Below are positions 32,108-36,705 of a stretch of 53,132 bases of DNA, in pieces (within the stretch, counting starts at the first letter, position 1; each line of letters starts with the position of its first letter). The translations under genes and the position numbers were made by a program. The notes under the pieces were generated by a model. The model was not told the DNA's origin. It searched no databases and saw only the letters and a program-made list of their open reading frames with translations. Source of the stretch: Clostridia bacterium (lineage in GTDB: Bacteria > Bacillota > Clostridia > Oscillospirales > Acutalibacteraceae); the NCBI GenBank assembly GCA_017935325.1, contig JAGBHV010000028.1, positions 1-53,132 on the forward strand. The letters run 5' to 3'.

Positions 32108-32116
32108 GAAATTTAA

Positions 32117-32211
32117 CTTATCTCTCGGATAAATTCCGCAGGATTTAGCACCTTGCAAAATGCAGGTTGCCGAGCTTCACAGGGCCTGTTCCCTCCGCTA
32201 CTCTTAATAAG
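32117..32211 (-). ncRNA. SAM-I (S-box) riboswitch aptamer upstream of metK
   Basis: On the minus strand the conserved S-box core is present: AAGAGTAGCGGAGGGAACAG, GGCCCTGTGAAGCTCGGCAACC, GGTGCTAAATCCTGC, and closing GAGAGATAAG pairing with the 5' CTTAT. SAM binding is expected to favour the downstream terminator and lower metK expression. Confidence 0.96.
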
Positions 32212-32232
32212 ATGTATTTAATTTACAAGTAT

Positions 32233-32925: not shown

Positions 32926-32943
32926 CAAAAGTTACATTCATAA

Positions 32944-33054
32944 AACCTTTCTTCCATCCGGACTATACCGTCGGCTTCGGAGTTTCACCGAATCAACCAT
33001 TTCTGGCTCGTGGGCTGTACCACCGGTGGGGAATCGCACCCCGCCCTGAAAGTA
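32944..33054 (-). ncRNA. FMN (RFN) riboswitch aptamer upstream of ribU
   Basis: Conserved RFN segments read on the minus strand: TCAGGGCGGGGTGCGATTCC, CCACCGGTGGTACAGCCCAC, GAGCC, GATTCGGTGAAACTCCGAAG, and CCGACGGTATAGTCCGGATG. The P1 stem is ACTTTC / GAAAGGT. It begins only about 18 bp after the acpP stop. Confidence 0.97.
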
Positions 33055-33071
33055 TTTTGTTTTGGCTGAAA

Positions 33072-33296
33072 TTACATTTCTTCTATATATTTAACAATAT
33101 CGCCTACTGTTTTGAAATTCTCAAGCTCTTCATCGGGAACTTCAACTTCAAAGCAGTCTTCAAGCGACATTGCAAGGTCAATCAAGTCAAGGCTGTCTGC
33201 ATCGAGGTCTTCCATGATAACTGTGTCTTCGGTAATATCGTCCTCTGAAAGGGCAAACTGTTCGCTGATGATTTTTTTGATTTTTTCCAATGCCAT
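33072..33296 (-). CDS. acpP: Acyl carrier protein
   Basis: A 74-residue acidic four-helix carrier of fatty-acid intermediates. The phosphopantetheine site is Ser35 in EDLDADSLDLIDL. It matches fatty-acid-synthesis ACP, but no other fab gene is near. It is followed almost at once by the FMN riboswitch and ribU, with no terminator in between. A promoter lies at 33340-33368. Confidence 0.96.
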   Translation of the reverse strand: MALEKIKKIISEQFALSEDDITEDTVIMEDLDADSLDLIDLAMSLEDCFEVEVPDEELENFKTVGDIVKYIEEM

Positions 33297-33339
33297 AGAT
33301 ATTCATCCTTTCTGTACGTACATTTATTGTACTAATCAT

Positions 33340-33368
33340 AATATAATAACTCTCAAACAATTTGTCAA
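33340..33368 (-). promoter_or_regulatory. SigA promoter of acpP
   Basis: Minus strand TTGACA (33363-33368), 17-bp spacer, TATATT (33340-33345). Confidence 0.72.
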
Positions 33369-33600
33369 GATATTTTAAAAAAGTTTGGCGGCAAATTTTT
33401 TAAAAGTTTTTTATTTTTGTTAAAATCTACAAAAAAATAATTTTTTATAAAAAGTCTTGACAGATTTTTGGTTACAAAGCTGTAACTTTTAGTTTTGCAA
33501 GTTTTTTGTTTCATTCCGTCATTTTCAGCTTTCAGATATAACTTTATCAAACTAAAGTTTTGCACTTTATTTTTGTTTTTACGCAAATTAAACGCAATTT

Positions 33601-33657
33601 TGTGGAAAACTTGAAAACTCACAAGTGTGTGGAAAACTCTGTGGAAAATGTGGAAAA
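33601..33657. other. Cluster of four DnaA-box-like sites
   Basis: TGTGGAAAA occurs four times in the same orientation: 33601-33609, 33628-33636, 33640-33648 and 33649-33657 (the last two abut). Its reverse complement TTTTCCACA fits the relaxed DnaA-box consensus TTWTNCACA. A related TTTTCAACA follows near 33699. The flanks are AT-rich. This could be part of an origin or a DnaA-titration/regulatory site; dnaA itself is not in the window. Confidence 0.55.
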
Positions 33658-34002
33658 GCCTTGAAAATCAAGGGGTTTTTAGATGTTTAAACAAAGTTTT
33701 CAACACTTTTAATTCTATTTTGTAATAATAAATGATTTTTCCCAACTTTTGTCATTTTGCAAGAGTTTTTAATTTTCTCCAATTTCAGGAAATTTTTTTG
33801 AAGTTTTTATGATAAAAAATACGAATAATTTTTGAAGTCAAGCAACAAAACTGTTACACTTTTTCTTCTAAAAACAAAATAAAAAAACTAAAAATTCATG
33901 TTTTTTTTGAATTTTTATTAAACTTGCACAAAAATCATCAGCGACAATTTCCGACAAGGGTCTTGACAAAAAAACAGCCCTCTCCGCAACCGCAAATAAT
34001 TT

Positions 34003-34031
34003 TCAGACGGACGCCCGATGGGCGCCCCTAC
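34003..34031. repeat. Solitary REP-like palindrome
   Basis: CGGACGCCCGATGGGCGCCCCTACGAG matches the fourth module of the block at 16519-16543, including the trailing CCCTACGA. It shows that the modules also occur singly. Confidence 0.75.
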
Positions 34032-34060
34032 GAGTGTTGGTTTTAATTTGTATGTTAAAT

Positions 34061-34184
34061 TATAATTTAGTGCAGAATGCAAAATTGCGGGTCTGCGACG
34101 CTATTATGTTTGGGTGTGGGCTTTGCCCACCCGCAAATTTGCACTCTGCACTATGCACTTTGCATTCAAATTATAATTTATCTG
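34061..34184. repeat. Palindromic element bounded by TAAATTATAATTT
   Basis: The left end TAAATTATAATTT (34061) plus GCAGAATGCAAAATTGCGGGT is inversely repeated at the right (ACCCGCAAATTTGC...GCATTCAAATTATAATTTA, to 34184). A GC-rich inner hairpin, GGTGTGGGC/GCCCACCC, lies about 34114-34135. There is no ORF. It has the form of a miniature inverted-repeat element. Confidence 0.65.
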
Positions 34185-34262
34185 TTGAAAACCATTTATG
34201 CATTGTACCTGCAATTTGTTATGAAATTCATATCAGTGATAGATGAAAAACTCCCCTTGAAA
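34172..34262. repeat. Dispersed repeat with decayed terminator end (copy E)
   Basis: The stretch from AAATTATAATTTATCTG through TATCAGTGATAGATGAAAAACTCCCCTTGAAAATG is the reverse complement, with a few changes, of 52690-52795. The 52.7-kb copy contains the intact copA terminator hairpin; this copy lacks the second arm. Confidence 0.8.
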
Positions 34263-34299
34263 ATGTCAGAGGAAATTTTCGTAAAAACCGGAGAATCCT

Positions 34300-34337
34300 G
34301 TAATAAACAAATATCCCACGCAAAACTGCGTGGGATA
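34300..34337 (-). terminator. Terminator of proS
   Basis: Stem TATCCCACGC / GCGTGGGATA (34312-34337) with a 6-nt loop; on the minus strand it is followed by TTTGTTTATT. Confidence 0.82.
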
Positions 34338-35874: not shown

Positions 35875-36456
35875 TTATTTTCTTTTTCTTATAAGATTCG
35901 GGCGTGAAAAATCAAGAACTGCACTGAGCAGGACTACTCCCAGAACTGTTATTGCCGTTTCAACACCCATGTATGAGCCGTTGTATGCAAGGGAATACAC
36001 CCACACGCTCTTCCAGCCTTCTGCATAATCTGCCCATACCGTAACACCCGAAAGAAAATGGCAGAGAAGCCTGATTACTGAAACAATTCCTGCACCGAGT
36101 CCGATGGAAAGAGCCTGATTCTTAATTTTATTCCTGAACATACCGCCGAAACCGAGAATTGTGAAAGCAAGAATATAATCAAGCATTGCGACGGCGATAT
36201 ATGCCCAGACAGTGTTGACATAACTGAAATTTGCAACACCTGAAATAAGCTGAAAGATTGACAGCACAAAACCTGAAAATGCACCCCACTTGAGTCCGTG
36301 GCGGTAAGATAAAATTATAATCGGCACCTGGCTGAATGCGGTAATACCCCCGCCCTGCGGCAATTTGTAAATTGTAATTACACTAAGCACACACGACAGC
36401 GCAACCATGATTGCACATTCCGTTAAAATTCTTGTTCTTTTTAAATTATCTGACAT
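35875..36456 (-). CDS. thiT: Thiamine ECF transporter S-component ThiT
   Basis: A 193-residue membrane protein with about six helices, the thiamine-binding subunit of an ECF transporter. Family motifs include the loop YKLPQGGGITAFSQVPI near residues 30-46, WADYAEGWKSVWVYSLAYNGSYM (thiamine pocket Trp/Tyr/Asn) and a basic C-terminus. A TPP riboswitch and terminator upstream confirm the substrate and give feedback control. The EcfA/EcfT module is elsewhere. Confidence 0.95.
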   Translation of the reverse strand: MSDNLKRTRILTECAIMVALSCVLSVITIYKLPQGGGITAFSQVPIIILSYRHGLKWGAFSGFVLSIFQLISGVANFSYVNTVWAYIAVAMLDYILAFTILGFGGMFRNKIKNQALSIGLGAGIVSVIRLLCHFLSGVTVWADYAEGWKSVWVYSLAYNGSYMGVETAITVLGVVLLSAVLDFSRPNLIRKRK

Positions 36457-36563: not shown

Positions 36564-36574
36564 GAATTATAAAT

Positions 36575-36672
36575 TAAGCTTCATCCCTACGCCGGCATTA
36601 TCCGTATCAGGTTATTAGGGTCAAAGGAAAACTATCCTTAATCTCAGCCGAATTTCATCAGCACCCCTTAAG
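36575..36672 (-). ncRNA. TPP (THI-box) riboswitch upstream of thiT
   Basis: Minus strand core: GGGGTGCTGATGAAATTCGG, CTGAGA, GACCCTAATAACCTGATACG, GGATAATGCCGGCGTAGGGA. The closing stem pairs CTTAAG with the 3' CTTAA region. Confidence 0.96.
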
Positions 36673-36705
36673 TTCTGTTAAATTTTTAAGACGTCTTATG
36701 AAAGG

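What the first reader, a model, noticed from the sequence alone, without database searches (positions are those of the whole stretch)
33601..33657. Four TGTGGAAAA boxes in 57 bp inside a 1-kb AT-rich gap: possible origin or DnaA regulatory site
The boxes match the relaxed DnaA-box consensus as TTTTCCACA, share one orientation, and two abut. They sit in the longest gene-free, most AT-rich stretch of the window, 23 kb from rpmH-rnpA-yidC-jag-mnmE, a cluster usually near oriC. dnaA/dnaN are absent, and neighbouring genes on both sides are on the minus strand, which is not typical. So this is either a dnaA-distant origin, a second origin half, or a titration site.
Basis: partly seen in the sequence, partly recalled or inferred. 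Interest (0 to 1): 0.7.

Follow-up and report, generated by a model that had tools for sequence, protein, structure and literature searches.

The report
Extra-origin DnaA-box element beside acpP
The four repeats are very probably landing sites for DnaA, the protein that starts chromosome copying, but they seem to sit away from the copying origin, in front of a fat-synthesis gene, as one copy of a fixed three-box pattern that recurs in related gut bacteria and may tune DnaA rather than start replication.

Summary
In detail: four TTTTCCACA boxes at 33601-33657, minus strand, in the window's AT-richest kilobase; 0 of 20000 local shuffles gave four. They are probably not the origin. In this genus a DnaA-trio-like tract lies upstream of dnaN (own contig C59), GC skew flips within about 9 kb of it in three genomes, and skew keeps its sign around the acpP boxes.

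Three boxes form a module spaced 9 then 12 bp, upstream of acp in 5 of 7 genus genomes; the other two gave no close acp match. In 1.37 Mb of public loci chosen by proS, this geometry gave 4 hits and 48 others none; three of the 4 lie upstream of acp. The core also precedes mraZ and an unnamed small ORF.

In 18 of 28 pattern matches among 398 family genomes the module belongs to a larger element with GTAAAG-N7-CTTTAC-like dyads, in several gene contexts. The window's copy lacks the dyads.

Best reading: a non-origin DnaA-binding element acting on DnaA availability or activity, perhaps also on acpP. Binding is untested.

The parts
33649..33657 (-). DnaA box 1 of the triple module (TTTTCCACA)
   Evidence: exact match; position conserved upstream of acp in G002, G006, G001, G005, with base changes in some
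33640..33648 (-). DnaA box 2, 9 bp from box 1
   Evidence: exact match; position conserved
33628..33636 (-). DnaA box 3, 12 bp from box 2; completes the 9/12 module 33628-33657
   Evidence: exact match; 9/12 is the enriched geometry
33601..33609 (-). fourth TTTTCCACA box, 18 bp beyond box 3; exact in the window and G002, one base off in G006; related elements have CTTTACA near this place
33697..33705 (+). opposite relaxed DnaA box TTTTCAACA, conserved in G000, G002, G006
33297..33975 (.). non-coding upstream region with several conserved blocks in G000, G002 and G006 (right end approximate); it goes with acpP, not proS
   Evidence: alignment; the gene beyond differs in G002 and G006
33471..33486 (.). 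inverted repeat GTTACA-N4-TGTAAC between the boxes and the acpP promoter, conserved in three species, binder unknown
   Evidence: alignment
33340..33368 (-). likely acpP promoter: -35 TTGACA 33363-33368, 17-bp spacer, -10 TATATT 33340-33345
   Evidence: read from the sequence; conserved in G000, G002, G006
33075..33296 (-). acpP, acyl carrier protein
   Evidence: PF00550; translation
32942..33057 (-). FMN riboswitch in front of the ribU-like gene
   Evidence: Rfam RF00050
32278..32928 (-). ECF transporter substrate component (ribU-like; name recalled); start uncertain
   Evidence: PF12822
34355..35791 (-). proS, prolyl-tRNA synthetase (name recalled, no family scan); its 3' end faces the gap
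   Evidence: translation; listed relatives 70-90% identical

Best explanation
The boxes are a DnaA-binding element outside the origin. Three head-to-tail boxes spaced 9 and 12 bp (outer boxes 21 bp apart, two helical turns) are proposed to seat an ordered DnaA oligomer. In related genomes the same core is flanked by GTAAAG-N7-CTTTAC-like dyads at a fixed distance on one side and at helically stepped distances on the other, which suggests a second DNA-binding protein; in the window's own subclade the dyads are gone and extra DnaA boxes stand near their place. The element most likely acts on DnaA itself, by holding or altering the pool available for initiation, and where it lies in front of acpP it may also tie acpP expression to DnaA. 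Shown by sequence: boxes, geometry, conservation, positions. Inferred: DnaA binding (about 0.85), not an origin (about 0.93), action on the DnaA pool (about 0.5).
For: The same 9-mer lies upstream of dnaN beside a trio-like tract, and family genome G045 has a dnaA-dnaN region dense in TTTTCCACA and TTTTCAACA beside a TAGTAG tract. The own DnaA aligns with solved DnaA chain 8btg (B. subtilis by recall) over residues 4-433 of 439, with GRDHSTV against GRDHTTV, and has PF08299. The module begins 361-389 bp upstream of acp in the 5 genus genomes that hold acp-ribU-metK. Spacing: of 93 strict pairs in 160 family genomes (2 for the reversed control), 40 are 12 bp apart, 12 are 9 bp and 9 are 21 bp; leaving out G000, G002 and G045, 34 of 69 are 12 bp apart. 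Loci chosen by proS alone: 4 hits for 9/12 against 0 for 48 other geometries at 24 of 27. Upstream of acp, 11 rows from 8 loci score 24-27 and the other 55 rows 20 or less; all 8 loci have the same orientation. Composite element: 18 of 28 pattern matches carry two further boxes that the pattern did not ask for; the left dyad, also not asked for, is perfect in 11 of 20 elements, each with 0 of 1000 shuffles as good. Gap from left dyad to box 1 is 22, 31-34 or 42-46 bp in 19 of 20. Gene contexts vary, which favours a stand-alone element.
Against: No binding data. The strict composite pattern is not more frequent than its reversed control (28 against 33 by my count); only the extra features separate real copies. 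That pattern does not match the window's genome, G002 or G006, and their copies have no convincing dyad (3-5 mismatches of 12), so their equivalence to the composite element rests on the core and on the place beside acp. Most acp rows have no module (55 of 66). Two of 7 genus genomes gave no close acp match. The elements are not independent: several come from one genus (g126, g15, g19, g147) or probably one species. Left-dyad matches of G012, G020, G024 and G092 are weak (3 mismatches; 32-65 of 1000 shuffles as good) and G254 has none. [quoted passage not shown] subtilis (passage), and PMC13220808 that tenfold DnaA there gave no over-initiation (passage).
Confidence: 0.52

Rival explanations
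1. A DnaA operator whose main job is to control acpP transcription, coupling fatty-acid synthesis to replication, as DnaA is reported to bind the ftsL promoter region in B. subtilis.
For: Module in one orientation 252-389 bp upstream of acp in eight loci and at 361 bp in the window; the same 30-bp core precedes mraZ in G003 and G006, with variants in the other five genus genomes; DnaA at the B. subtilis ftsL promoter region is cited in PMC8203912 and PMC11019786 (passages); fatty-acid synthesis affects replication through oriC in B. subtilis (PMC4207641, passages).
Against: The module lies about 260 bp upstream of the likely -35 box; in G012 a gene lies between, in G021/L019 it is about 3 kb from acp beyond proS; the composite element also sits between rpe-like and tsaD genes and elsewhere; most acp rows lack it. 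PMC8203912 notes that DnaA's transcriptional activity has not been shown to matter much for division timing (passage).
Confidence: 0.26
2. The array binds another regulator, for example MraZ (whose operator repeats contain GTGG, recalled) or an unknown protein, and only resembles DnaA boxes.
For: At mraZ it abuts GTGG-containing repeats; in G001 spacer and box changes (CCACCGATTTTTCCACA) are shared by acp and mraZ, in G005 only partly.
Against: The GTGG repeats at mraZ run the other way with about 10-bp steps (read), while the array is 9/12; arrays occur without mraZ; flavour follows the dnaN-side boxes.
Confidence: 0.12
3. Origin of replication, or half of a bipartite one.
For: Box cluster in an AT-rich gap; in G001 the acp array is 14 kb from the dnaN-side boxes on one contig.
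Against: No trio seen at the site; trio-like tract upstream of dnaN in 7 of 7 genus genomes; skew flips near dnaN, not here.
Confidence: 0.04
4. Chance or neutral relic of AT-rich sequence.
For: The 9-mer is not enriched genome-wide.
Against: 0 of 20000 shuffles; conservation in 5 genus genomes; geometry enrichment.
Confidence: 0.02

Closest known systems
Non-oriC DnaA-box clusters of Bacillus subtilis (Okumura et al. 2012; paper not held, known here through passages of PMC13220808, PMC5295017 and PMC4447404)
   Same: Several DnaA boxes in intergenic DNA outside oriC. One B. subtilis DnaA region is downstream of gcp; here modules or box pairs lie downstream of tsaD (gcp by recall) in G056, G029 and G034, and composite elements in G367, G318 and G024.
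   Different: A fixed 9/12 triple core shared between unlinked loci, and flanking CTTTAC dyads; the passages read do not mention such a geometry in B. subtilis.
E. coli DARS1, DARS2 and datA
   Same: A three-box core outside oriC (DARS) plus helper-protein sites whose distance matters (PMC4245941, PMC4585315, passages).
   Different: No IHF or Fis site was looked for; nucleotide exchange or hydrolysis is untested; box orientation in the DARS core was not in the passages; PMC4245941 says that the DARS2 core is conserved in gamma-proteobacteria, and PMC13220808 that B. subtilis lacks these loci.
DnaA-bound promoter region of B. subtilis ftsL
   Same: Box arrays upstream of mraZ in this genus may parallel it.
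   Different: The acpP copy lies far upstream of its likely promoter.
Chromosomal oriC
   Same: Same box sequence.
   Different: No trio seen, no skew switch.

Membership tests
oriC | DnaA-trio beside a DnaA box | tested here: not met
   none seen in 33301-34300 (by eye); trio-like tract upstream of dnaN in 7 of 7 genus genomes, the neighbouring box degenerate in G001, G003 and G005 (by eye)
oriC | GC-skew switch at the site | tested here: not met
oriC | marker-frequency peak | not testable with these tools
   no reads
DnaA-box cluster outside oriC | at least three boxes less than 100 bp apart on average (definition quoted in PMC7561715) | tested here: met
DnaA-box cluster outside oriC | lies outside oriC | tested here: met
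   by skew and trio only
DnaA-box cluster outside oriC | binds DnaA | not testable with these tools
   indirect only
DARS / datA | three-box core outside oriC (DARS) | tested here: met
DARS / datA | helper-protein sites at set distance | tested here: inconclusive
   dyads in relatives, not in the window's copy; binder unknown
DARS / datA | catalyses ADP release or ATP hydrolysis on DnaA | not testable with these tools
   needs purified DnaA
DnaA-regulated promoter | boxes overlap or adjoin the promoter | tested here: inconclusive
   about 260 bp between box 3 and the likely -35 of acpP; a second, nearer promoter was not excluded
MraZ operator | direct GTGG repeats with about 10-bp steps (recalled) | tested here: not met
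   spacing 9 and 12

The most novel reading that the evidence does not exclude
The three-box core with dyads is a stand-alone DnaA-control locus of Firmicutes, a counterpart of DARS or datA in a phylum whose model species lacks them: an ordered DnaA oligomer on the 9/12 core plus an unknown dyad-binding protein resets or drains active DnaA, and the acpP copy links this to lipid synthesis. In the window's subclade the helper sites were replaced by further DnaA boxes.
Probability: 0.2. Interest if true: 0.85.

Novelty: new variant of a known kind. Interest (0 to 1): 0.55.

Why it matters
A 2026 review says that datA and DARS are absent from B. subtilis and that it is unknown whether that species has regulators balancing ADP-DnaA and ATP-DnaA (PMC13220808, passage). 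A conserved box geometry with helper-like dyads, in one recognised copy in each of 18 genomes, gives a concrete element on which to test that in Firmicutes. Its recurrence near acpP, and of its core near mraZ, offers a testable link between replication, lipid synthesis and division in a gut family known mostly from metagenomes.

Tried and rejected
Origin: rejected on trio, skew and the dnaN locus. TTWTNCACA is uninformative. An unoriented scan of acp loci was misleading and was redone. Two wrong-frame translations of acpP were corrected. The composite pattern alone does not beat its control. MraZ as binder: judged unlikely from spacing and orientation. No Pfam family for the small ORF. Literature, held library only: no paper holds 'DnaA box' with acpP and promoter, 'DnaA box' with Ruminococcaceae, or DnaA with ftsL and yllB; 12 hold 'DnaA box' and mraZ, of which I looked into one; most subscription papers and the Okumura paper are not held. 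L019 and G021, L029 and G131, L034 and G355 carry identical arrays and are probably the same species, so they are not independent. In one search some loci gave two rows; one L095 row used a 3218-base stretch through a slicing slip; L286 had itself been found by a box pattern. In one search G019 was left out and 6 of 19 genomes had too few boxes. The skew tables are noisy: the own C59 turns negative again from 36 kb, and the first 12 kb of G006:C8 are positive. The repeat scan of the gap gave one 82% hairpin and mostly AT-rich pairs.

Full report
WHERE IT IS. The window is a whole contig (C51) of a draft genome of 1.97 Mb in 96 contigs, 81.5% complete. The nearest listed public relatives are metagenome-assembled genomes titled Clostridia, Ruminococcaceae, Oscillospiraceae and the like. 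The four boxes lie between acpP and proS, both on the minus strand; acpP is followed by an FMN riboswitch and a ribU-like gene, then a SAM riboswitch and metK (metK by recall).

CHECK OF THE OBSERVATION. In 20000 local dinucleotide shuffles none reached four copies. The single 9-mer is not enriched in the genome (51 against 62 control), so the signal is the clustering. Pairs in one orientation with gaps of 0-30 exist at four places in the genome: here, between serS and dnaN (C59), upstream of mraZ (C95) and between dinB-like and small ORFs (C10).

NOT THE ORIGIN, AS FAR AS TESTED. In the own genome dnaA lies on C13 and dnaN on C59, as serS-dnaN-recF-gyrB with parA- and parB-like genes near (most names from recall of the sequences). 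Upstream of dnaN, 7 of 7 genus genomes have a trio-like tract (CTAnTA repeats), beside a DnaA-like box that is degenerate in G001, G003 and G005 (by eye); a trio precedes the unwound region in C. difficile and is suggested to do so in other clostridia (PMC7561715, passages). Skew turns from negative to positive at about 84 kb of G002:C22 (dnaN boxes at 92.6 kb), about 44 kb of G006:C8 (boxes at 51.4 kb) and about 24 kb of the own C59 (boxes at 17.7 kb), though C59 is negative again from 36 kb and the first 12 kb of G006:C8 are positive. Around the acpP array skew keeps its sign: negative in the window, positive from 112 to 152 kb of G002:C9. In G001 skew is too weak to tell.

CONSERVATION AT acpP. 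The genus holds seven genomes. Five hold acp-ribU-metK, all with the array: G000 and G002 are identical over the 30-bp core, G006 differs in one base, and G001 and G005 keep three box-like words with 9/12 spacing but changed last bases. G003 and G004 gave no close acp match. Other blocks of the upstream region are conserved in G000, G002 and G006, including a GTTACA-N4-TGTAAC repeat and a TTGACA-17-TATATT promoter.

THE GEOMETRY. Of 93 strict box pairs in 160 family genomes (49 genomes with a match; reversed control 2 matches), 40 are 12 bp apart, 12 are 9 bp apart and 9 are 21 bp apart; every other class has 4 or fewer. Pairs overlap within arrays and G045 alone gives 12; without G000, G002 and G045, 34 of 69 are 12 bp apart. 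The 80 public loci (1.37 Mb) chosen by proS were scored for three boxes at 49 spacing combinations, each box at least 7 of 9: 4 hits for 9/12 and none for the other 48 at 24 of 27; at 23 of 27, 4 for 9/12 and 9 in all for the other 48. Three of the four lie 255-369 bp upstream of acp. Upstream of acp the best score is two-peaked: 11 rows from 8 loci at 24-27, 55 rows at 20 or less.

OTHER PLACES OF THE CORE. Upstream of mraZ in the genus (full or partial array in 7 of 7) and in G048 and G044; it is absent from most of the other 23 mraZ loci. Upstream of the small ORF, 16 of 23 genomes have two or more box words within 300 bp. Also near tsaD, rlmB, dnaX-like and gyrB genes in other genomes.

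THE COMPOSITE ELEMENT. Around acp modules of relatives I saw TGTAAAG-N7-CTTTACA on the left and CTTTACA 16 bp after box 3 on the right. A search of 398 family genomes for box 3-N16-CTTTAC gave 28 matches in 27 genomes; the reversed control gave 33 by my count, so the pattern alone proves nothing. But 18 of the 28 carry both further boxes at 9/12 spacing, each at least 7 of 9, and the other 10 do not. Adding G092 and L028 gives 20 elements; the left dyad is perfect in 11 of 20 and within 2 of 12 mismatches in 15 of 20. Eight of these 20 had suggested the motif (G001, G005, G012, G021, G131, G355, G092, L028); G383, G172, G300, G405, G243 and G152 are new and perfect. The dyad-to-core gap is 22, 31-34 or 42-46 bp in 19 of 20, four of them with weak dyads. 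Of the 18, six have acp 223-374 bp downstream of box 3, G012 has it one gene further, G021 lies about 3 kb from acp, G231 ends near a contig edge, three lie between rpe-like and tsaD genes, and six lie elsewhere. Several come from one genus, so they are not independent.

THE WINDOW'S COPY. It has the perfect core but no dyad (best match 5 of 12 mismatches on each side); an opposite TTTTCAACA box stands on the left and a fourth TTTTCCACA on the right. I read it as a variant of the element in which helper sites were replaced by DnaA boxes; this step is inference.

WHY DnaA. Same 9-mer upstream of dnaN, an ordinary DnaA with a GRDHSTV motif, and box flavour following that of the dnaN side (kinship not corrected for). 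Binding has not been measured.

MECHANISM. I commit to a non-origin DnaA-binding element acting mainly on the DnaA pool (0.52), with an acpP operator as the main rival (0.26). B. subtilis offers precedents for both: six extra clusters whose joint loss gives early initiation (PMC13220808 and PMC5295017, passages), though PMC5295017 also says that no cluster with a significant role has been identified there; and DnaA at the ftsL promoter region (PMC8203912, PMC11019786, passages). E. coli DARS shares the plan of a three-box core plus helper sites (PMC4245941, PMC4585315, passages), but its defining activity is untested here.

Noticed in passing
L012:6746-7012 (own C10:46745-47011): Small ORF of 89 aa without a Pfam match, found in 22 of 25 same-family and 1 of 15 other genomes searched; 16 of these 23 have two or more DnaA-box words within 300 bp upstream. 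Function unknown.
   Followed up: partly
L010:3829-5148: dnaA lies on C13 directly behind another gene, away from dnaN and with no box cluster upstream; in G000, G001, G002 and G006 serS stands upstream of dnaN, where G045, G023 and G024 have dnaA.
   Followed up: partly
L011:8765-8792: Box array between GTGG-type repeats and the start codon of mraZ, in 7 of 7 genus genomes in full or partial form.
   Followed up: partly
L159:8683-9263: In G045, 21 relaxed DnaA boxes within 580 bp upstream of the small ORF, against 19 in 345 bp at its dnaA-dnaN region.
   Followed up: no
L012:6500-6555: GAACATTTGTTC repeats in front of the dinB-like gene, which look like SOS (LexA) boxes (motif recalled).
   Followed up: no
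34056-34180: Nested inverted repeat (34-nt arms, 82%, inside 13-nt perfect arms) near the 3' end of proS, possibly a small repeat element.
   Followed up: no
32115-32213, 36566-36678: SAM riboswitch before metK and TPP riboswitch in front of the ORF at 35875-36456.
   Followed up: no
33471-33486: GTTACA-N4-TGTAAC inverted repeat conserved between the boxes and the acpP promoter; binder unknown.
   Followed up: no
L166:5414-5458: In G005, three TTTTCCACA boxes upstream of ylxM- and ffh-like genes (names recalled).
   Followed up: no
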